Translations under genes and position numbers: made by a program
In this document: in pieces, positions 51,678-61,830 of the stretch
Numbering within the stretch: the first letter of the stretch is position 1
Layout: every line of letters begins with the position of its first letter
NCBI GenBank assembly: GCA_022402445.1
Contig: JAKRSF010000008.1
Location: 558,001 to 622,000 of the forward strand
DNA length: 64,000 bases
Reading direction: 5' to 3'
Origin: Cyanobacteriota bacterium
GTDB lineage: Bacteria > Cyanobacteriota > Cyanobacteriia > CACIAM-69d
Notes under the pieces: model-generated
Told to the model about the DNA's origin: nothing
Database searches by the model: none
The model's input: only the letters and a program-made list of their open reading frames with translations

Positions 51678-53240
51678 CTAGTCCTCCTGGAGCCATGCGG
51701 TGACGGCGGCGGTGGAGATACGGATGAAGGGGTTGGAGAGCACCGTGGCGATCGCTTCTTGGCCGCCTGCTTTGAGGGCACGCTTGAGCTGTTTCTTGAA
51801 TTTTGGGCTCGCGGCGATCGCTTCTTGCAAGAGGGGTTCGAGGTCCGCGCGATCAGTGCCCATGGCGGATGCGCCGGTGAAGAGGGTTTGGAGGCGATCG
51901 CGCAATTCCTCCGGTTTGGCCGTGCGCCCGTCCGTCAGATCGTGGTCCAAAATCGTCGGCGCGATCGCGGCGGCCAACGCCGGAGCCGTCTCAGGATTCG
52001 GGGGCGCATCACTGCCCAGCCAGCGGGCAAAGGCCGCCGGGAGATCAATGCCCGTGGCGTGGCGCAACTGCTCCGACAAGGACGCCACCCGCGCCGCCGC
52101 ACTGTCGCTGGCCCCGTCGATCACCGTCACATTCTGCACCGTCACCTCCGGCACCGTGGACACCAGCGCCTGCAGAAGCACATCGAGTTTTTGGAACAGG
52201 AAAATTTCCCGCGCGCTTGGTCCCGCCGATGCCCAGGATTTGGCCAGCTCCTCAATCCCCGCCGCCTGGGCGCGACCGTCTTCGACAATGCTGGCGGCGT
52301 CCCCCTTGGCCTTGGCGATCGCCTGTTTACAAGCCGCCTCCGCCGGGGCCACCACGTCCGCCTGGAGCTGTTGGCGCACCTGATCAATGCGGGCCTGCTG
52401 CACTTCCAATTCCGCGCTCACCTTAGCCACCTGGGCTCCCACCTGGGCTTGCGCCTCCGCGACGAGGGCTTGGCGCATGGTTAGGGCATCTTGCAGCCGC
52501 CGCTCCGCCTCCGCCCGCGCGATCGCCTCCTCCGTTTCAATGCGTTTGAGGGCCGTGCGTTTTTCATTTTCCGCCGCCTTAATTTTCGACTCCGCCCGGT
52601 TCCGCGCCTCGGCAATGCGCGCATCCCGCAGCAGTTCCGCCTGCTGTTTACGGCCAATGGAATCGAGGTATTTTACGTCGTCGGAAATGTTTTGAATTTG
52701 CAGGTTATCAAGCACCAGCCCCAGCTTTTCTAGATCATCTTCCGCCTCATCCAATAAACTGCGGGCAAAGGCGATTTTGTCTTCGTTCACCTGTTCCGGC
52801 GTCAGGCTCGCCAAAACCCCCCGCAAATTTCCCTCTAGGGTTTCCCTAGCTAGCTGCTCCACCTCTTGGCGGGTTTTGCCCAGGAGCCGTTCAATTGCGT
52901 TATGGATCGTCGGTTCTTCCCCGGCAATTTTAATATTGGCGACCCCTTCTACGGACAGGGGAATGCCCCCTTTGGAATAGGCATTGATCACCTTCAATTC
53001 GATGATCGTATTGGTCAAATCCATGCGAAAGGCCCGCTCCAGCAGGGGCACCCGCAGGCTTTTTCCCCCCTTGACGAGGCGATATCCAACCGTGCGGCCC
53101 GATTCCAATTCCCGCTTGGGTCCGGCAAAGATCAAGACTTCACTGGGCTCGCAAATGTAGAGCAAATTGCGAACGATTAAATTGATGGCAAACACGCTCA
53201 GGCCGGTGGCCGAAAGCAGGGCAATGAGGATTCCAACCAC
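51678..53240 (-). CDS. Flotillin-like SPFH-domain protein
   Basis: A 520-residue membrane scaffold: an N-terminal hydrophobic segment (ILIALLSATGLSVFAINLIV), an SPFH domain (about 25-200; EPSEVLIFAGPKRE, INAYSKGGIPLSVEGVANIK), then a long coiled coil rich in Glu/Ala (about 200-330), and a C-terminal segment with a short helical tail. SPFH proteins form oligomeric membrane microdomains. It starts 6 bp after the end of a second flotillin and is probably translated from the same mRNA. Confidence 0.88.
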   Translation of the reverse strand: MVGILIALLSATGLSVFAINLIVRNLLYICEPSEVLIFAGPKRELESGRTVGYRLVKGGKSLRVPLLERAFRMDLTNTIIELKVINAYSKGGIPLSVEGVANIKIAGEEPTIHNAIERLLGKTRQEVEQLARETLEGNLRGVLASLTPEQVNEDKIAFARSLLDEAEDDLEKLGLVLDNLQIQNISDDVKYLDSIGRKQQAELLRDARIAEARNRAESKIKAAENEKRTALKRIETEEAIARAEAERRLQDALTMRQALVAEAQAQVGAQVAKVSAELEVQQARIDQVRQQLQADVVAPAEAACKQAIAKAKGDAASIVEDGRAQAAGIEELAKSWASAGPSAREIFLFQKLDVLLQALVSTVPEVTVQNVTVIDGASDSAAARVASLSEQLRHATGIDLPAAFARWLGSDAPPNPETAPALAAAIAPTILDHDLTDGRTAKPEELRDRLQTLFTGASAMGTDRADLEPLLQEAIAASPKFKKQLKRALKAGGQEAIATVLSNPFIRISTAAVTAWLQED

Positions 53241-53246
53241 GATGTA

Positions 53247-54704
53247 CTAAACCTCCTCGGATTCGGGGGACTGGGTGGGTGCGGCGGGGCTGAGAACTGT
53301 TTCGGCAACGGTCGGGGACTGGAGGGCGATCGGCGTGCGACCCCCCATGAGGCTCACCTGCAAAATCTGTTCCGCCTGGGTGAGGAAATCGCGGGCCACG
53401 GCGGGATAGGCGGTCAATAGGCCGGAGAGGGTTTTGCCGTCGCCGCGATCGATCGCGTTGATCTGCTTGAGCTTGAGCCGTTCTGGGACGCGGGCCGCCT
53501 GGTGCAAAACCGTTTCGAGCTGCTGGAGGGCAAAGAGTTCGGCGGCGCTGTCGCCGGTGTCGCGCCAGACCTTGGCGAGGAGATCATTGACGGTGGCGGC
53601 GGCCTTGGCGTTTTCCGTGAAGCTGGCGGCGGCCCCCCGGGCGAGGGATTCGCGGGCCTGCCGCTGGGCGTCGGCGGGCAGCACTTGCTCCACCTCTAGG
53701 CGCAACCGTTCCAGTTCGGCGCGGATGGTTTGCAGTTCCTTTTCGGCGCGGGCGCGGGCGGCATCGGCGGCGGCTTTGGTGCGTTCCTCCTGCGATCGCG
53801 TTTCCTGATCGAGGGTGGCTTTGATTTCCCGCAGGGCGTTTTGGCGCTGTTGGATTAAAGTTTTGGCTTGGGTTTGGGCCACCTCCGCCTGGCGATCGCA
53901 GTCCGATTCCACCTGTTCTGCCTCGGCGATCGCGTCGGATTCCGCAATTTCCGCATCCCGCAGGACCACCGCAATCTGCTTGCGGCCAATGGAATCGAGG
54001 TAGTCCACGTTGTCAGAAACGCTCTGGATTTTGAGGGTATCTAAATGGAGGCCCAATTTCGCCAAATCGTCGGACACATCATTGGCGATGCGATCGGCAA
54101 ATTCTAGGCGATCTTCGTTCAACTGTTCCGGCGTGAGGGTGGCGACGACGCCGCGCAAATTCCCCTCTAAGGTTTCCCGGGCGACCCGGCGAATTTCCTT
54201 CGGATCGCGATCTAAAAACCGTTCGATCGCGTTGCGCACAATGATCGGATCGCTGGAGATTTTGACATTGGCGATCGCCTGAATATCCAGGGGCGTTCCC
54301 CCTCTCGCGTAGGCATTTTTCACCTCGACGGACACGGGCATGGTGCGCATGTCCATGGATTTGACCGTTTCGAGGATGGGAATGCAGTAGGTTTGGCCGC
54401 CGAATTCGACCCGGTAGCCCACCCGCCGCCCATCGATCACCTGCTGACGGCCCGAGACAATCAGGATTTTGTTGGGATCGCAGATGCGGATGACGGCATT
54501 GAGCAGCCAAATGATCGCCGCCGCCCCCACGAGGGGAACGAAGACAGCGATCGCGGTGCCGACGGCGGATCCAGAGGCTTGGGCCAGGAGGGGGGCCGCT
54601 GGCGGGGCGGGGGCAAGGCTGATGCTGGTTTCCGCGATCGCCGCCTCCGGGGCGAGGTGAATCCGGGGGGCGAGGGCCGTATGGCTGGGGGCAAGGTCAT
54701 TCAT
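53247..54704 (-). CDS. Flotillin-like SPFH-domain protein (second copy)
   Basis: A 485-residue protein with the same layout as its neighbour: an N-terminal extension of about 45 residues, a hydrophobic segment (VGTAIAVFVPLVGAAAIIWL), an SPFH domain sharing NAYARGGTPLDIQAIANVKI, ETLEGNLRGVVATLTPEQLNED and YLDSIGRKQ with the other copy, then a coiled coil. The two are clearly paralogues that have diverged outside the SPFH domain, so a hetero-oligomer is likely. ATG 54704 is three codons inside an in-frame GTG-type alternative at 54713. Confidence 0.88.
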   Translation of the reverse strand: MNDLAPSHTALAPRIHLAPEAAIAETSISLAPAPPAAPLLAQASGSAVGTAIAVFVPLVGAAAIIWLLNAVIRICDPNKILIVSGRQQVIDGRRVGYRVEFGGQTYCIPILETVKSMDMRTMPVSVEVKNAYARGGTPLDIQAIANVKISSDPIIVRNAIERFLDRDPKEIRRVARETLEGNLRGVVATLTPEQLNEDRLEFADRIANDVSDDLAKLGLHLDTLKIQSVSDNVDYLDSIGRKQIAVVLRDAEIAESDAIAEAEQVESDCDRQAEVAQTQAKTLIQQRQNALREIKATLDQETRSQEERTKAAADAARARAEKELQTIRAELERLRLEVEQVLPADAQRQARESLARGAAASFTENAKAAATVNDLLAKVWRDTGDSAAELFALQQLETVLHQAARVPERLKLKQINAIDRGDGKTLSGLLTAYPAVARDFLTQAEQILQVSLMGGRTPIALQSPTVAETVLSPAAPTQSPESEEV

Positions 54705-54766
54705 AGGGCGCACTGAAGTTTAGCGAAGGTTTCAAAGCCGGTCAGAAACAGGAAAACATCGGGACT

Positions 54767-55450
54767 TTAGGGGGTGCGATCGCGATCGCCCGGATCTGAG
54801 GCCACCCAGGCCCGCCCCCCTTCAAGGGCAATGACAAAGACGCGATCGCCCGGTTGAAACGGTCGCTCCTCGCGGGTGATGGCCTGCACCGCCACCGGAG
54901 AGCCCCGCACCACCAAACGCACCTTGCCGCGACTGGACGCATCAAAGGGCAACTCCACCACCCCCGCCGCCCCGATCCAATCCTCCGGGCGCAGGAGGCT
55001 ATCGCTGTCCCCTTGCAGTTGTAGCCACGCCAAAATCCAGGTGGCCGCCGTGCCGATCGCCGTGCCCGTCCCCACGGCCCACAGCAGCGCAAATCCGGGC
55101 GAAAGGGACGGTTGCAGCCACTCCAACAGCAGCCCCATCAGGCCAAAAAAGCACAGGCCAAAGGTCCAAAACCGCCACCGCAAAAAGGGCAGCCACGGAA
55201 ACCGCGATCGCGATCGACGACCCCTAGGCCGCTGGGCATCGAGATCCCCGTCGGTGAGCCCCGGCGGCCCATCGCCCTCGTCGCCCGCGCCAGCCCCAGC
55301 GCCCCCGTCGGCACCCCCCTGGGCAAAATCCAGCAGGCCCTGGGCATCCCAGTCATCGCCCGCGATGTTCGCCCCATCGAGCCCTCCGAGGGACGCCAAC
55401 AGCACGAAAATGCCGCCCCCCACTAATCCGGCCACATACAGTAGCGTCAC
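54767..55450 (-). CDS. NfeD-like membrane protein with OB fold
   Basis: A 227-residue protein and the first gene of the flotillin operon. It has an N-terminal TM, a Gly/Ala/Asp-rich loop (about 30-80) ending in an Arg-rich patch, two more TM segments (WTFGLCFFGLMGLLLEW; LLWAVGTGTAIGTAATWILAW), and a C-terminal OB fold (GAAGVVELPFDASSRGKVRL, FQPGDRVFVIALEGG). NfeD-type OB domains are the usual operon partners of flotillins (YqfA/YuaG with YqeZ/YuaF). The start is GTG 55450. Confidence 0.8.
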   Translation of the reverse strand: MTLLYVAGLVGGGIFVLLASLGGLDGANIAGDDWDAQGLLDFAQGGADGGAGAGAGDEGDGPPGLTDGDLDAQRPRGRRSRSRFPWLPFLRWRFWTFGLCFFGLMGLLLEWLQPSLSPGFALLWAVGTGTAIGTAATWILAWLQLQGDSDSLLRPEDWIGAAGVVELPFDASSRGKVRLVVRGSPVAVQAITREERPFQPGDRVFVIALEGGRAWVASDPGDRDRTP

Positions 55451-55556: not shown

Positions 55557-55607
55557 GGCATGGGGAGCACGGGGCGTATGGTCTTAACCACAGAACGAGT
55601 CTGGACT

Positions 55608-56489
55608 TCAGGACGGTGCTCCAGGGGTGCGGTCGCGCTCTGCCTGTTCCCTTTCGGCTTTGTCTAGCTCCTCTTCTCGGCGCTTTTTTTTGCGCTTTTC
55701 ATCATCTTCTATGACTGCTCCAATTTGGGCATTGAGTTTCTCGAATAATTCTTCCAAGACATTTGTTTTCTGGACGCAGGTACTTTTCTCAGGTGATGCA
55801 TCAGTGAGACTAAAGCCTCTAACTGCGCTCCCGCTCTCTTCAAGCACTTCAAGAAAGGATTGTATGTCACGCAAAGAATCTACCACCTGTGGCACCTGCT
55901 TGGCGAGTCCTCCAGTAGACATGGCGGTTAGGATTGTAATTGCGTCTATGATCTTAATCGACCATAAAAAGGCAGATTTTCCTAACTGACTAAAGCCCGA
56001 TCCAGAATCGTAGTCAGGCCGTATTAGTTGATTGGTTGATCTTCTGATGCCGTTAAGCTCACCAAGTATGTTTTTTTGTTCAAGCTCAAGAGCAGCAGTT
56101 TCTTCAGAGGTAATGTCAGGAATTATGGTGTCATGGGAACTAAAAATAGCGCTACCTGTATCAACCACCAAGCTGGGTGGGGGCTGATTAGGGGGTTCGA
56201 TGGAAAAATTTCTTTCCCTTACGGTTATCGGAACAGCCACGGTAGAGGAGCCTGAGCTAAGACCCAAGATTTCGCGAGTTTCATCAAGAAGACTTGAAAG
56301 ATCTTGAAGTTTAGCAATTCCCAAGTCGCAATCATCGATAAGCTGCTCGATCAGTCCCGCTAATTCTCCTATGCCCGTGCTCCCAAGATTTTGAGCAAGA
56401 TCTAACGATGACTCAGCCAGGTCCATCAGGATCAGAGTCTGACGGAGTAACCCCTCAATTACTTCCAGCAATTTCTTGTGATTGGACAT
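55608..56489 (-). CDS. Island protein with helical-hairpin N-terminus and charged coiled-coil tail
   Basis: A 293-residue protein of unknown family and the last gene of the island operon. Its first 76 residues form a helical module (LILMDLAESSLDLAQNLGST..., ending DDCDLGIAKLQDLSS) that aligns without gaps over 41 positions with the 73-residue protein encoded next to it, sharing Cys-x2-Gly and E-x-R-(D/E)-hydrophobic2-G. A middle segment has a hydrophobic stretch (FLWSIKIIDAITILTAMSTG), possibly membrane-associated. The C-terminus is a highly charged helix (DDEKRKKKRREEELDKAERE). It starts 15 bp after the 73-residue gene. Function unknown; the shared module suggests that the two proteins bind each other or a common partner. 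Confidence 0.75.
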   Translation of the reverse strand: MSNHKKLLEVIEGLLRQTLILMDLAESSLDLAQNLGSTGIGELAGLIEQLIDDCDLGIAKLQDLSSLLDETREILGLSSGSSTVAVPITVRERNFSIEPPNQPPPSLVVDTGSAIFSSHDTIIPDITSEETAALELEQKNILGELNGIRRSTNQLIRPDYDSGSGFSQLGKSAFLWSIKIIDAITILTAMSTGGLAKQVPQVVDSLRDIQSFLEVLEESGSAVRGFSLTDASPEKSTCVQKTNVLEELFEKLNAQIGAVIEDDEKRKKKRREEELDKAEREQAERDRTPGAPS

Positions 56490-56503
56490 GAGAGTTTAGA
56501 GTG

Positions 56504-56725
56504 TCAACCGACTAGATCTCGCATTTCCTCTGCAATATCTTGAGCTTTTTCATAGGTTTTTAAACCTTCTGTGCACAGATCATCTAGCTGCTGAATTTTT
56601 CTGGGAAGTGTATCAAGCTCGGCTGAAGGTAGCTGCTGAGCTTCGACGCGCAGTTCTTCGGCAATTTCCAGGACGATTTGCATGGTCTTTAGAAAATCAT
56701 CAACGAGAGGGAGTATCTGATTCAT
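56504..56725 (-). CDS. Small helical island protein, paralogue of its neighbour's N-terminus
   Basis: A 73-residue protein (MNQILPLVDDFLKTMQIVLE onward), predicted to be two long helices forming a hairpin, with a single Cys. It resembles the first 76 residues of the next gene. The size recalls WXG100 or effector-associated adaptor modules, but there is no WXG motif. An in-frame GTG at 56776 would add 17 hydrophobic residues. It lies between the FtsK-like ATPase and the 293-residue protein. Confidence 0.7.
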   Translation of the reverse strand: MNQILPLVDDFLKTMQIVLEIAEELRVEAQQLPSAELDTLPRKIQQLDDLCTEGLKTYEKAQDIAEEMRDLVG

Positions 56726-56878
56726 GGTATTGGGATGGAAAAGGATTGGCAAACCAATTGCCGTGTACAATAACACAATTACAATTCGAGAGCAACTAAA
56801 ATTAAGTTAGTCTTTGGAGTTTTATACTGCTGACATTCAGGTTAGGCAAACAGGAAAGTTGATCTTTGATCGCAGGTT

Positions 56879-58918
56879 TCATGGGGAGAGGGATTTGTTC
56901 TTTAGCTGTTCCCAAAAATTCAATTCTGTGACAAGATCGTCGTCAGGGAAACGGGGCGTTGCAACCTCTTTCAAATCTTCAGCATCACCTGCGTAATCTG
57001 GACCGAGATAAATGCCACGTCCCTTATGACGGGGTGAAAGTTTGGAAGCCTTATCACTTCCAAGGAAGCGCATACTGACCGTATCAGCACTAACTCTAAA
57101 GATCAAACGGTCTCCCACATTGTTTAGCAAGTTGTTATCGATAATACGCTCTTCTTTACTTTGGGTACAGAAAATAACGTTTGCCTTGGATGCGCGTCCT
57201 AGGCGAACGATTCTATCGAGACTTGCTTGAATAGAGTTTGCGATTTCCTTTTGGTCACGATCCTTATCATCGTAAAGGTGGATAAGTTGCGCCATCTCAT
57301 CAATGATTAGAATGTTGCGTCCCCAGGACGCTTCATCTCTTTTCTGATCCTGTTCTTCCTTGTAGCGTTGTCGCTTCTCAGGAGTCAGTGACAGAAGACG
57401 TTCTAACTCGTCTTGGATGTCTTGCTGTTTGTCAGCAACCCGGTCTTCTACTCGGCTCCAAAAATCTTTGAGGAGCTGATCGAATGCAGCGTAGTCTGTA
57501 ATCAGTTGGACATTGGGAAATATTTTGCTGACCACCTGAAAATCCACGCCTTTCTTAAAATCTGCCAGCCAAATTGGACGATTGGGATCATGCCACAGTA
57601 GCTGATAGAGTAGAACCTTCAAAAAGTTGGTTTTCCCAGCACCCACTTCGCCTGCCACAAATCGATGTGCTGAAACTCGAAAATCAGAGAGGATAGGCTG
57701 ACCAATACTATCTGTTCCGACGATATATTCATCGCTACTGATTAGATTGCCATGGCTTTGAATAAGAGATTCTAAAGTGTAGGTTTGAGCAAAAGGCTTA
57801 TTCATTTCAGTCTGTCGTAGGTTGCGGTAGTGATTAACAATTTCAATACAAGGCGCGACAAACCGCTCCGCAATCGTGATTGAAAAGTGGCTACTGAGGG
57901 GCTGTAGATCAGCAACGACAGCGGCAGGAGGTAGGTTTCCGCTATGTAGGGTGGACAGCAGGGAACCGCTCGAAGTGTCAGTTTGAGCCAGTGCCATCGA
58001 CGGCTGCCTAACCAGAGATGCACCAAACTCTTGCTTTATCGTTGAGTCGGTAAGTGAGGCAGAGGTGCTAGATTGACTATCCAAAATTTTCTGCTTAAAT
58101 GGGCTTGACAGTTTGGGCTGAGGGCTGCTGAGGGAGCCATCACCGTAACGATCAAGAAAGCCTTTTTTCGGTGGAGGAATTACCTTGTCAAAGGTTAGCT
58201 GACCAATTGTATGCTTGTATTTTGGCCAGGGCTGAAGCGGAGCAGGCTTACGCTCAGCAAAGGTATGAAGATGTTCGGCAAAGCGAGGATTGTGGGGTTC
58301 GTAGAGCTTGATCGCAGGATGCTGATCGCCTCCCAGAACTATATCAGTCCAAGTAGTGAGTAAGTTGAGCGCGTCAGCAGGGTATTCGCTGAAAGCGCGA
58401 ACGCTCAATCGATAAAGTTTTGCTGGCTGATCCTTGAGAAGTTTTTGGTAGAGAGTTAAAGCTTTATCGTAATGGAGAGTACGTTCATCTGGGTCTAGTT
58501 CTTGGAGATGTTTGATGGCTTGAACTAGAGCTCGGTTCCAGGGACGATCACTGTTGTTGGATACAGATTGGCTGATGATTTCAACAAGGATCTGACCTCG
58601 AAGTTTATTGATTTTTGCGAAGAGATCCTCAAGAGGCCATAGAGAGTTTTTTACAAAAATAGGAGGATAATAAAGTTGACTGGTGAGATCTAAGTTCTCC
58701 TCTCTCTCCCACTGAACTTCACTGATGGCAGTTACCCAATCAAGTGACCCGAATTCTTGGTCACTATCAAGCGCAAGTTCTTCAAGGTAGATCTTGACTT
58801 CCGACGATATATCTATATCAAGGGAATGGTAGCTGATCTCCGGAAATCTCTCAGAGTTGATTAGCAGGTGGAAGGCAAGTGACGATTCACTTATAATATG
58901 TTGCAGCGAACGAATCAT
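56879..58918 (-). CDS. FtsK/SpoIIIE-like ATPase of the island
   Basis: A 679-residue protein without TM segments. The N-terminal 380 residues are of unknown type: helical, with TPR-like stretches (HYDKALTLYQKLLKDQ), then a Ser-rich linker (about 255-330). The C-terminal 280 residues are an FtsK-type motor: Walker A VAGEVGAGKTN (423-430), IWLADFKKGVDF, Walker B ILIIDEM (DE at 540-541), the FtsK-specific RLGRASKANVIFCTQ (about 572-586), and RLIFRVSADTVSMRFLG. FtsK, HerA and EssC relatives move DNA or protein through a ring; this one has no gamma domain and no membrane domain. A membrane anchor could be supplied by the island's TM proteins. The substrate is unknown. Confidence 0.85.
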   Translation of the reverse strand: MIRSLQHIISESSLAFHLLINSERFPEISYHSLDIDISSEVKIYLEELALDSDQEFGSLDWVTAISEVQWEREENLDLTSQLYYPPIFVKNSLWPLEDLFAKINKLRGQILVEIISQSVSNNSDRPWNRALVQAIKHLQELDPDERTLHYDKALTLYQKLLKDQPAKLYRLSVRAFSEYPADALNLLTTWTDIVLGGDQHPAIKLYEPHNPRFAEHLHTFAERKPAPLQPWPKYKHTIGQLTFDKVIPPPKKGFLDRYGDGSLSSPQPKLSSPFKQKILDSQSSTSASLTDSTIKQEFGASLVRQPSMALAQTDTSSGSLLSTLHSGNLPPAAVVADLQPLSSHFSITIAERFVAPCIEIVNHYRNLRQTEMNKPFAQTYTLESLIQSHGNLISSDEYIVGTDSIGQPILSDFRVSAHRFVAGEVGAGKTNFLKVLLYQLLWHDPNRPIWLADFKKGVDFQVVSKIFPNVQLITDYAAFDQLLKDFWSRVEDRVADKQQDIQDELERLLSLTPEKRQRYKEEQDQKRDEASWGRNILIIDEMAQLIHLYDDKDRDQKEIANSIQASLDRIVRLGRASKANVIFCTQSKEERIIDNNLLNNVGDRLIFRVSADTVSMRFLGSDKASKLSPRHKGRGIYLGPDYAGDAEDLKEVATPRFPDDDLVTELNFWEQLKNKSLSP

Positions 58919-59045
58919 GTAGTTGAGGATTTGAGCAGGAAATGTAGTGCCCTAAATGGGTAATGATCCTGGTCTGAAAGCTCTATGACGCAAGAGTTAC
59001 GACAGAAAAGAACATTATCTTCGTAGGACTACCTAAGAATAATGG

Positions 59046-59264
59046 TCATTTAAGATCTCTCCATTCTCGCAATCTTTCTAAAAGACCATTAACTTCACTA
59101 TTAACGCTTTCTAGCTTTCCGATTTTTCGTCCTTTCAAAAGACCTCTGACTGCAAAGTATAAGGCTATCAGAAATAAACATGAAAACACTGATCCTGCTG
59201 CAATGCGCACTATTCTTACTATATCTATAAACTCCTTTGAATCCACCAACGCCAGAAACAACAT
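59046..59264 (-). CDS. Small single-TM island protein
   Basis: A 72-residue protein: a short N-terminus, one TM segment (IAAGSVFSCLFLIALYFAVR), a basic patch (GLLKGRKIGK) and a C-terminal helix (VNSEVNGLLERLREWRDLK). By the positive-inside pattern, the C-terminus should be cytoplasmic. An in-frame GTG at 59282 adds six residues. It follows the HEAT-like gene by about 46 bp and precedes the ATPase gene by 127 bp. It is a candidate membrane adaptor for the soluble ATPase. Confidence 0.6.
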   Translation of the reverse strand: MLFLALVDSKEFIDIVRIVRIAAGSVFSCLFLIALYFAVRGLLKGRKIGKLESVNSEVNGLLERLREWRDLK

Positions 59265-59310
59265 ATTTCTACAAACCTGCACTATTACCTACACTGAGTT
59301 AATTTAAAAG

Positions 59311-60786
59311 CTAACCGCCGGATCCACCGCCAGACATGGCAGCAGAAATTAATAACATGACAACGAAAATAATAAGGCCAACTATGAGAACTATCACCTC
59401 AGCAAAAACAACAATCAGCAAGAAGTAAATTGACCATTTGGCAAACATCTTGCCCGCTTCAGATAAATCTGATATTTCAGATTCTGTGGTTCTAATAACA
59501 TCGAAATTTGCATGTGAAATTTTCTCAAGATCTCTCTGCAGTTCATCTTTTATCTTCTTCAAGTGCTCATACTCTCTCAATAGAGTTGTATGTGTCTTGC
59601 GACCTACAAGTTTCCCTGAAGATATTGATCTGATTTTTACTGATTTGATTTCATCATACTCAGATGATTCCACAGATGCAACGGTTCCCAGAAGCAGACT
59701 GTAATTATAACCTAGAAGAACATCTAATCGAAGAAGGTCTTGCATTCTCTTCTCAATTGCTAATTGCCATGCCTTTTCACGCTCTAGGTATTGGTCATAG
59801 TTTTCAATACAAAACTTTTCTACACGATGAAATTCACTGAGTGATCGAATGATGTTTTTTGCGTCTTTTAAATCAGACATCTGTCTATTTGATTTGTCGA
59901 TACTCAAGCCAAGATCTTCCATTGTCTTATCCTTCAGTGAGTTAATATCATTGATTGGATATTGAAATGTAAGAATCTGAGCCAGCTTATTCGCATTTTC
60001 CCGAGAGACCGAATCCAACTTTAGAAAACATTCAAAATATGTGCTTTGCAAATAGTCAAGAGGATCAGACAAATAATTTTTTGCCATGCTTACAAGTCGA
60101 GGAAATACGATTTTTCTCTGTGTAACTTCATTTGCATCGTCAGTTTTGAAAGCTTGAACTACTCCATAGCCAGAAAGTCTATCAAGAACCTCCTCAATAT
60201 CTTGTCTTTCTGGATTTCTTGCCTGAAACAGTCGTTGGGTTGGGCCAAATATCCAGAAGTTTAGATAATCTTCATAGTCAACGGTGCGACGACCAAGAGG
60301 ATCAAGCCTTCTGACGTATTGCTGTCTTCCTAGCATTTTTTCTTCGATTTGACGCATATAAGCTTCCGGCGCTCTAGGAATAGAGGCAAGATTGAGACTG
60401 TGAGATGAATACCCAATGAGATTCATAGCCATGGCTGCAGACCATTGCGTTAGTTCACTGCCAGCCCTTGAGTTATCTAATTCTCCTTTAAAGAGCTGAA
60501 GCACGGCAGATGCATCTTTAGACTGACAATCCCTCATCTCTTTGAGAGTGTTCATACATCCTAATTGAGCCAACCCTTGAAGTGCAAGGGCTCTCAGTCG
60601 CCAATCACCATTCTTATAGCTTTTCAAAATTTCAGCAAATGCTCCCAACGCGACTTCTGGAGACTGACTAGCGAGTGAGAGGCATAGGGCAATTCGGTCT
60701 CCATCTTCTAGCTGCTCCGAAGACGTAAGAAGATAATTTAGGTCGGCGGCATTCCTAATGTTATGCACAAGATCTTTAAGGGACAT
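59311..60786 (-). CDS. HEAT-like protein with C-terminal membrane anchor
   Basis: A 491-residue protein and the first gene of the island operon. The N-terminus has HEAT/ARM-like helices (LRALALQGLAQLGCMNTLKE). The middle is helical and polar with a long coiled coil (about 395-450). The C-terminus is a hydrophobic stretch long enough for one long or two short TM segments (IYFLLIVVFAEVIVLIVGLI and IFVVMLLISA), ending in a Gly tail (MSGGGSGG). This orients most of the protein in the cytoplasm, tail-anchored. No catalytic motif is visible, so a scaffold or sensor role is the simplest guess. Confidence 0.75.
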   Translation of the reverse strand: MSLKDLVHNIRNAADLNYLLTSSEQLEDGDRIALCLSLASQSPEVALGAFAEILKSYKNGDWRLRALALQGLAQLGCMNTLKEMRDCQSKDASAVLQLFKGELDNSRAGSELTQWSAAMAMNLIGYSSHSLNLASIPRAPEAYMRQIEEKMLGRQQYVRRLDPLGRRTVDYEDYLNFWIFGPTQRLFQARNPERQDIEEVLDRLSGYGVVQAFKTDDANEVTQRKIVFPRLVSMAKNYLSDPLDYLQSTYFECFLKLDSVSRENANKLAQILTFQYPINDINSLKDKTMEDLGLSIDKSNRQMSDLKDAKNIIRSLSEFHRVEKFCIENYDQYLEREKAWQLAIEKRMQDLLRLDVLLGYNYSLLLGTVASVESSEYDEIKSVKIRSISSGKLVGRKTHTTLLREYEHLKKIKDELQRDLEKISHANFDVIRTTESEISDLSEAGKMFAKWSIYFLLIVVFAEVIVLIVGLIIFVVMLLISAAMSGGGSGG

Positions 60787-61122
60787 CGTCTTGCAGGAGC
60801 TTGATTTTTAGCTTTGGACTGAGGACAAGTTATAGAACAGATGATAGACAAGTTTTTCGTGAGCGGCAATGGATGACAGCAGTTTAGTTGCAACTTGCCA
60901 ACTGATTAGAAAAAGGCTTGCTGCTGCTTTGCCGTCAGCCTAGCAAGGGGCCTTTGGGGGCCACGGAATTTTGCGGCAAACCTTAACCATTGCCCTGGGC
61001 CAAGTTCCTCAACCCCCTCGGTTAGCATGGGGGAGATCGCGCCGTCCTTGCCCTCCCCGATCCCAAACCATGGGCGGCACCGGATCTAGGCCACTTCTAC
61101 AGCCCTTCCCAGCAACCTAGCC
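60787..61122. other. Right edge of the island and LRAT gene upstream region
   Basis: About 340 bp: first the AT-rich upstream region of the HEAT-like gene, which should hold the island operon promoter, then the right direct repeat (60936-60991), and then GC-rich native sequence leading to the LRAT gene. No additional gene is seen. Confidence 0.5.
60936..60991 (+). repeat. Right direct repeat of the low-GC island
   Basis: Second copy of the 56-bp repeat, same orientation as the copy at 55501, with T-to-C, G-to-A and T-to-C changes. Composition switches from AT-rich (left) to the native GC-rich style at this point. Confidence 0.9.
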
Positions 61123-61830
61123 ATGGCCCGAGGCGACCAAATCTACGTCCTGCGATCGCTCCTGAACCTGGACAGCCTGTATGAGCACCACGGCATCGAC
61201 TGCGGCGACGGCAGCGTGATTCACTATTCCAAATCCGGGGATGAGCCGGAAATTCGGCAAACGTCCCTCGAAAATTTCGCCAAGGGAAAACCCATCTCCC
61301 GCCGGGATTACCCCACGGCCTACATCGCGGAAACGGTGATCCATCGGGCCACCAGCCGCCTGGGGGAACGGCGCTACAACCTGCTGTTCAATAACTGCGA
61401 GCATTTCGCCACCTGGTGCAAAACCGGCGCAAGTGTCAGTAAGCAGGTGCGTGATGCGGCCCCGATGCTGGCGACATTGGACCCGGCGGCGTTGGATCCG
61501 GCCCTCAAGGATGCCCTGATGGGGGGCGATCGCGCCGATGTGCCCCAGCTTCTTGACCGCGCCCTAGCCGATGCCCGCACCCTGTGGGAAAGTTTGCAGC
61601 CTCGCTACGAAACCGCCCGCCGGGACGTGCAACAGTGGGATCGGGTCGCCAAGGAGGCCCTGCGTCGCCAGCGGGAGGATTTGGCGAAGGGGGCGATCAG
61701 AAAAAAACTCAAGGCCCAGCAGGAGGCCCAACGGCTCAAAACCGAGCTCGATCGCCTCGCCCAAAGCACGGAAACCCTGGTGCGCAACGGCCAGCGCCTG
61801 GGCATTGATCTCTCCCGCTGGCGGCGCTGA
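61123..61830 (+). CDS. LRAT-domain (lecithin retinol acyltransferase-like) protein
   Basis: A 235-residue protein. The N-terminal 110 residues are an LRAT/NlpC-P60-type papain-like fold: HHGIDCGDGSVIHYS (catalytic His) and NNCEHFATWCKTG, the NCEHF motif with the catalytic Cys. The rest is an Ala/Arg/Gln-rich coiled coil (about 125-225). LRAT enzymes make thioester intermediates and transfer or hydrolyse acyl groups of lipids. HIP1 sites and GC content show it to be native, just outside the island. Confidence 0.82.
   Translation: MARGDQIYVLRSLLNLDSLYEHHGIDCGDGSVIHYSKSGDEPEIRQTSLENFAKGKPISRRDYPTAYIAETVIHRATSRLGERRYNLLFNNCEHFATWCKTGASVSKQVRDAAPMLATLDPAALDPALKDALMGGDRADVPQLLDRALADARTLWESLQPRYETARRDVQQWDRVAKEALRRQREDLAKGAIRKKLKAQQEAQRLKTELDRLAQSTETLVRNGQRLGIDLSRWRR

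What the first reader, a model, noticed from the sequence alone, without database searches (positions are those of the whole stretch)
56879..58918. Soluble FtsK-type motor with an unknown 380-residue N-terminal region
The motor motifs are intact (Walker A 423-430, DE 540-541, RLGRAS...CTQ), but there are no TM segments, no gamma domain and no tandem ATPase as in EssC. Two island partners supply membrane anchors, which suggests a split version of a membrane-bound motor. Its cargo could be DNA or protein.
Basis: partly seen in the sequence, partly recalled or inferred. Interest (0 to 1): 0.65.

Follow-up and report, generated by a model that had tools for sequence, protein, structure and literature searches.

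The report
Cyanobacterial toxin-export operon with soluble motor
The motor gene belongs to a small, horizontally acquired cyanobacterial operon that pairs a DNA-pump-like ATPase and a membrane anchor with tiny hairpin proteins and hairpin-tagged toxin proteins, so it most likely moves protein toxins in the manner of type VII secretion, although no known secretion system has this set of parts.

Summary
In detail: window 56879-58918 (-) encodes a 679-aa FtsK-type ATPase with intact motifs, no transmembrane segment, no gamma domain and one motor core. It is one gene of a low-GC island (43% against 62-64% outside). Relatives in other cyanobacteria keep the gene order: HEAT-like protein with a membrane anchor, motor, small two-helix protein C, then protein D. 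The motor's N-terminal region is a conserved domain. It is also found fused to a HerA-type motor in Nostocales, so the motor core is swappable. In the three FtsK-type loci, D begins with a copy of C. In one of them D ends in a MafB19-type deaminase toxin domain followed by an Imm1 immunity gene; in another it ends in a nuclease-like domain. This points to a polymorphic-toxin delivery module working like type VII secretion, with protein cargo. It is not a type VII system by definition: no multi-ATPase EccC/EssC, no WXG motif. Main weaknesses: the deaminase locus has a truncated motor, the window's own D has no recognised toxin domain or immunity gene, only about 1% of sampled cyanobacteria carry the operon, and export is inferred. 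New variant of a known kind; export-type reading about 50% likely.

The parts
59311..60786 (-). Gene A: HEAT-like/coiled-coil protein (491 aa) with C-terminal membrane anchor
   Evidence: A profile built from relatives without the window finds it as top hit, E=2.6e-17, among 1225 ORFs; hydrophobic segment 447-491
59046..59282 (-). 78-aa protein with one membrane segment and a charged C-terminal helix; found only in the window among the loci examined
   Evidence: Hydrophobic segment 18-51, maximum 2.29; same strand, 28-bp gap to gene A
56879..58918 (-). Gene B: soluble motor; conserved N-domain (about 1-230), linker, FtsK-type ATPase (about 380-650)
   Evidence: PF01580 E=2.9e-10; 29% identity over residues 52-636 to the G040 motor, E=3.7e-27; N-domain Smith-Waterman z=5.8 against L032
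56504..56725 (-). Gene C: 73-aa two-helix hairpin (ATG at 56725; a GTG start at 56776 would give 90 aa)
   Evidence: Top hit of a profile built only from L032 and L031 hairpins, E=9.9e-5; model of two helices, pLDDT 87
56253..56489 (-). N-terminal hairpin of gene D, paralogous to gene C
   Evidence: z=10.6 to 12.2 against gene C; unrelated coiled-coil controls 4.1 or less for gene C and 2.3 or less for D
55608..56489 (-). Gene D: 293-aa candidate effector; helical C-terminal part of unknown function
   Evidence: Position and N-terminal hairpin match the toxin genes of L031 and L032; no family hit for the C-terminal part
55590..60800 (.). Low-GC island holding the whole operon
   Evidence: 43.2% GC against 62.6% (left) and 64.4% (right); flanking gene groups occur without it in the same family

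Best explanation
The gene is the ATPase of a mobile, operon-encoded toxin-deployment module that works like type VII secretion. Shown by sequence: (1) four gene types kept in order (anchored HEAT-like protein A, N-domain plus motor B, hairpin C, protein D) in unrelated cyanobacteria and at unrelated sites; (2) in the FtsK-type loci, D's N-terminus is a paralogue of C; (3) D's C-terminal part is variable, being a MafB19-type deaminase with an Imm1 immunity gene next to it in one locus and a nuclease-like domain in another. Inferred: C pairs with the N-terminal hairpin of D to make a four-helix targeting unit; B hexamerises, recognises this unit, is held at the inner membrane by A and the 78-aa protein, and threads D out (or into a contact-dependent route) to poison competitors. 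The variable C-terminal part is the warhead. How D crosses the outer membrane is unknown.
For: Same gene order in G040 and, with HerA-type motors, in G211, G368 and Calothrix; Sphaerospermopsis keeps motor, C and D, and its gene A runs off the contig. Deaminase tip PF14437 E=5.4e-10, above cutoff; Imm1 PF14430 E=6.7e-10, above cutoff, next gene about 8 bp downstream. The same tip caps RHS proteins and a HecA-family adhesin in other bacteria, and in Nostoc commune it sits beside an Imm1 gene on a different N-terminus. C-D hairpin paralogy above coiled-coil controls. Window C found blind, E=9.9e-5, and window A blind, E=2.6e-17. C predicted as a hairpin, pLDDT 87. One gene-A homologue carries an FKBP prolyl isomerase domain beyond its membrane segment, E=1.6e-37. 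Operon lower in GC than its flanks in every measured locus except one side of L044. Literature: Lap-type hairpins pair with toxin hairpins in T7SSb (PMC9600955); Imm1 is an immunity protein for SCP1.201 deaminases (PMC3482391).
Against: The deaminase/Imm1 locus (G225) has lost gene A and the motor's N-domain, so toxin, immunity and intact motor never occur together in this sample. The window's D has no recognised toxin domain, no relative on plasmids and no immunity gene; the G040 D also lacks an adjacent immunity gene. The HerA-type C and D proteins are not detectably homologous to those of the FtsK type. The ATPase domain's best solved match is a DNA translocase, TcpA. No outer-membrane component was seen. 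Window N-domain homology to the HerA type is not significant directly (E=0.62) and rests on L032 as the bridge.
Confidence: 0.5

Rival explanations
1. Intracellular conflict (defence) system: motor and HEAT protein sense invading DNA or phage and release the hairpin-tethered effector D inside the same cell, with hairpin C acting as an adaptor or antitoxin-like partner; nothing is exported.
For: The FtsK-type motor cores match PADLOC defence ATPase profiles mad8 (2.1e-14, window) and SspH (7.3e-20, L032) better than EccC. Patchy spread on low-GC islands. Constant parts plus variable effector also describe the cyanobacterial NTP-dependent conflict systems of PMC7159879. Window and G040 lack an immunity gene.
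Against: Imm1 beside the deaminase, and the use of the same tip in RHS and HecA-family proteins, are marks of secreted toxins. Membrane anchors in gene A and the 78-aa protein. No partner genes of Ssp/Dnd or MADS were matched in the operon.
Confidence: 0.27
2. DNA translocase or conjugation-like coupling protein: the motor moves DNA, and C and D are accessory or entry-exclusion factors.
For: Best solved homologues are TcpA (6e-24) and FtsK (2e-16). The HerA-type version matches CedD, 74 bits. A 45%-identical copy of the G040 nuclease-like tip sits beside a TraD-like ATPase in G198.
Against: No relaxase or pilus gene was seen around the motor, and no FtsK gamma domain. The tree separates it from TcpA, FtsK and the long Dpt/Ssp-like ATPases. 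Toxin and immunity domains are not expected.
Confidence: 0.13
3. The operon is a decaying remnant or the hairpin-toxin fusions are accidental; the motor has an unrelated housekeeping role.
For: G225 motor truncated just before the Walker A site. Rare: 4 of 388 cyanobacterial genomes by the gene-A profile plus synteny. No window D homologue on plasmids.
Against: Intact motor motifs and gene order kept at about 29% identity. Four HerA-type copies with 62-95% identical N-domains. No match in the five sampled family relatives, so not housekeeping.
Confidence: 0.1

Closest known systems
Type VII secretion systems (T7SSa-T7SSj; EccC/EssC + EsxA/TsxA, LXG toxins with Lap partners; PMC11217815, PMC9600955)
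   Same: FtsK-superfamily ATPase, small helical-hairpin protein, toxin with N-terminal hairpin next to a hairpin partner, variable C-terminal toxin, immunity gene in one locus
   Different: One motor core, soluble; no membrane-anchored multi-domain EccC/EssC; no WXG motif in the turn; HEAT-like anchored protein instead of EssB/EsaA/EccB/D; found here only in diderm cyanobacteria
Solo WXG proteins with three-domain YueA-like ATPase noted for several lineages including cyanobacteria (Zhang et al. 2012, PMC3482391, Table 1 footnote 6)
   Same: T7-like, mobile, includes cyanobacteria
   Different: That ATPase has three HerA/FtsK domains with only the middle one active; here a single core with its own N-domain, and the toxin is attached to the hairpin
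TcpA and related conjugation coupling ATPases
   Same: Closest solved ATPase-domain match (6o1w, E=6e-24)
   Different: Separate clade; no conjugation partners; conserved N-domain instead of a membrane-spanning one
DptH/SspH and MADS mad8 ATPases
   Same: ATPase profile matches (mad8 2.1e-14; SspH 7.3e-20 for L032)
   Different: SspH models are about 1,560-1,770 aa long; partners of those systems not matched; separate clade from long Dpt/Ssp-like ATPases of cyanobacteria
HerA/DUF87 family ATPases, incl. CedD
   Same: The Nostocales versions of the operon use a HerA-type core (CedD 74 bits, DUF87 above cutoff)
   Different: The window's core is FtsK-type; no CedA or NurA partner

Membership tests
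Type VII secretion system | EccC/EssC ATPase: membrane-anchored, several ATPase domains | tested here: not met
   Single core, no transmembrane segment; NCBIfam EccC/EssC scores 15-38 bits against cutoffs of 346-778
Type VII secretion system | Small (about 100 aa) WXG100-family helical hairpin | tested here: inconclusive
   Hairpin predicted with pLDDT 87, but no WXG in the turn and no WXG100 Pfam match; PDB alignment lists EsxOP at Z 9.2, tied with many unrelated hairpins
Type VII secretion system | Toxin substrates with N-terminal hairpin and hairpin partner, with immunity genes | tested here: met
   Met in L031 (deaminase + Imm1); L032 toxin-like without immunity gene; window D has the hairpin but an unknown C-terminal part
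Type VII secretion system | Membrane partners (EssB/EsaA/EssA or EccB/D/E) and ubiquitin-like EsaB | tested here: not met
   None among the operon ORFs; no Pfam or NCBIfam match
FtsK/SpoIIIE chromosome translocase | N-terminal transmembrane segments and C-terminal gamma domain | tested here: not met
TcpA-type conjugation coupling ATPase | Conjugation partners (relaxase, TcpD/TcpE etc.) nearby | tested here: not met
   No such ORF or family hit around the motor in the window
DptH/SspH (Dnd/Ssp) systems | Long ATPase with phosphorothioate-system partners | tested here: not met
   679 aa; no PADLOC match for partners; separate clade
MADS mad8 | Eight-gene mad operon | tested here: not met
   Only the ATPase domain matches mad8; neighbours have no mad match
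Polymorphic toxin system | Constant trafficking N-terminus + interchangeable toxin tip + immunity gene | tested here: met
   Met for the family through L031 and its relatives; for the window only the hairpin N-terminus is shown

The most novel reading that the evidence does not exclude
A distinct class of motor-driven protein export machine of diderm phototrophs: a soluble motor with a dedicated N-domain, docked by a HEAT-like membrane adaptor, whose motor core can be either FtsK-type or HerA-type, secreting hairpin-tagged toxins. It would be an independent or strongly streamlined solution to the problem solved by type VII secretion.
Probability: 0.35. Interest if true: 0.85.

Novelty: new variant of a known kind. 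Interest (0 to 1): 0.62.

Why it matters
Zhang et al. [quoted passage not shown] A four-gene module in cyanobacteria with a soluble single-core motor would be a much simpler test case for how FtsK-superfamily motors recognise hairpin substrates. The apparent exchange of FtsK for HerA cores behind one N-domain suggests that the N-domain and HEAT partner, not the core, define the cargo. That can be tested directly.

Tried and rejected
The first genome-contig scan with the motor alone and a viral-contig scan found no relatives. Most weak motor hits in cyanobacteria are a different family, a nuclease-like domain fused to an FtsK core; rejected by their N-terminal sequence and by the tree. AlphaFold model of the motor failed (mean pLDDT 39), so no fold is claimed for the N-domain. 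Foldseek with the hairpin gave only generic helical hairpins, none at E<=0.001. Profile-profile tests of window D and gene C against the HerA-type D and C gave no significant match; an apparent shared hydrophobic motif was dropped. SPFH/NfeD and LRAT neighbours were considered as partners and rejected: they occur without the operon in family relatives. No plasmid relative of window D, of the G040 gene A or of the G225 hairpin. Deciding DNA against protein cargo from the ATPase domain alone was judged impossible. Paper searches found no description of this operon, but the library holds open-licence papers only.

Full report
The observation. The ORF at 56879-58918 (-) codes for 679 residues with Pfam FtsK_SpoIIIE at E=2.9e-10. 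Walker A 423-430, DE 540-541, RLGRAS and CTQ are present, and most of these columns are invariant in the relatives found. Hydropathy shows no membrane segment (maximum 1.06), and there is no second motor core and no gamma domain. The whole own genome has only this one PF01580 protein.

The operon. Five genes lie on the minus strand in one low-GC block (43.2% against 62.6% and 64.4% outside): a 491-aa protein with a C-terminal membrane anchor, a 78-aa one-segment protein, the motor, a small hairpin protein (C) and a 293-aa protein (D). The flanking SPFH/NfeD cluster and LRAT-domain gene occur without the operon in family relatives, so they are not part of it.

Relatives. Searching 388 cyanobacterial genomes with the motor gave two true relatives. 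G040 (locus L032) has gene A, motor (29% identical over residues 52-636), C and D in the same order. G225 (L031) has a motor cut off just upstream of Walker A, then C, D and an immunity gene. A profile of gene A found two more operons, G211 (L043) and G368 (L044), and an N-domain scan of 84,980 species found Calothrix rhizosoleniae (L055, complete) and Sphaerospermopsis aphanizomenoides (L056, gene A cut by the contig end). In these four the N-domain is followed by a HerA/DUF87-type core instead of an FtsK-type core. The operon is less GC-rich than its flanks in each locus measured, except one side of L044 where it is about equal. Only 4 of 388 sampled genomes have the motor-bearing operon whole.

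Homology tests. With profiles built without the window, window gene A is the top hit of 1225 ORFs at E=2.6e-17 and window gene C the top hit at E=9.9e-5. Two further gene-A matches in that test are stand-alone genes of G276 and G122. The N-domain of the window aligns end to end with that of L032 (z=5.8, 0 of 400 shuffles), and L032 with the HerA-type N-domains at z=30. The window does not reach significance against the HerA type directly (E=0.62). Gene C and the first 80 residues of gene D are paralogues: z=10.6 to 12.2 in the window and about 17 to 22 in L031, while unrelated coiled coils give at most 4.1. The L032 hairpins are tied to the window's only through L031. HerA-type C and D proteins are not detectably homologous to the FtsK-type ones, so their equivalence is by position only.

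Toxin evidence. D of L031 ends in a MafB19-type deaminase (PF14437, E=5.4e-10), followed about 8 bp later by an Imm1 gene (PF14430, E=6.7e-10). The same tip is found on RHS proteins and a HecA-family adhesin on plasmids, and Imm1 relatives lie on the same records. In Nostoc commune the tip (95 of 123 residues identical) and Imm1 (91 of 137) sit together behind an unrelated N-terminus, which is how polymorphic toxin tips are exchanged (PMC3482391). D of L032 ends in a domain with a D...ExK pattern typical of restriction-endonuclease-like folds (reading of the sequence; no Pfam hit); a 45% identical copy stands beside a TraD-like ATPase in G198. The window's D has an unknown C-terminal part without database relatives and no immunity gene.

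Structure. The hairpin C is predicted confidently as two helices, residues 4-30 and 39-72 (pLDDT 87.4). Structural matches are generic hairpins; EsxOP appears at Z 9.2 among many unrelated rows. The motor model failed.

Motor phylogeny. The three FtsK-type cores form one clade (98/97), apart from TcpA, EccC, FtsK, long Dpt/Ssp-like ATPases and the nuclease-FtsK fusions. Branches are long, so only separateness, not the sister group, is claimed. Among solved proteins TcpA is closest.

Mechanism. Shown: parts, order, homology, toxin tip and immunity in one locus. Inferred: C and the D hairpin form a targeting unit, as Lap proteins do with LXG domains (PMC9600955); the motor recognises and threads it; gene A and the 78-aa protein dock the motor at the membrane. 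One gene-A homologue carries an FKBP prolyl isomerase domain after its membrane segment, in keeping with protein folding beside the machine; on which side of the membrane it lies is unresolved. The defence rival is serious, because the motor cores score well against defence ATPase profiles and constant-plus-variable designs without secretion are known in cyanobacteria (PMC7159879).

Verdict. The finding is real. The module works like a toxin-delivering type VII system in outline, but it fails the defining tests of that family, so it is filed as a new variant of a known kind with about even odds that export is its function.

Noticed in passing
G000 and G040 whole genomes: PF01580 search found only the island motor in each genome; no canonical FtsK chromosome translocase was detected.
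   Followed up: no
L005, L006, L007, L008, L014, L018, L019, L021 and others: Cyanobacterial family fusing a nuclease-like 'FECPRLFYLG' (Cas4/RecB-like) domain to an FtsK-type ATPase; in several loci the open frame continues upstream into an RNase D-like exonuclease, suggesting a three-part fusion.
   Followed up: partly
window 51678-55450: Two Band-7/SPFH proteins and an NfeD-like protein in a row; the same cluster occurs in family relative G064 (L098) without the motor operon.
   Followed up: partly
window 61123-61830: LRAT-type acyltransferase domain fused to a PspA/IM30-like coil; found in all six genomes of the family.
   Followed up: partly
L045:6938-8770, L046:6525-8315: Stand-alone homologues of the HEAT-like gene A with no motor beside them.
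   Followed up: no
L043:7850-10267: HEAT-like protein with membrane segment and C-terminal FKBP prolyl isomerase domain.
   Followed up: partly
L100, L101, L102, L103: Plasmid-borne relatives of the HerA-type core (Priestia, Acinetobacter, Streptomyces, Anabaena) in gene neighbourhoods of unknown function, some with Hsp70-like or GTPase genes.
   Followed up: partly
L093:9692-10684: The nuclease-like tip of the G040 D protein recurs beside a TraD-like coupling ATPase near transposase genes.
   Followed up: partly
L099:7668-8797: Deaminase tip and Imm1 gene on a Nostoc commune plasmid behind an unrelated N-terminus: an orphan toxin cassette.
   Followed up: yes
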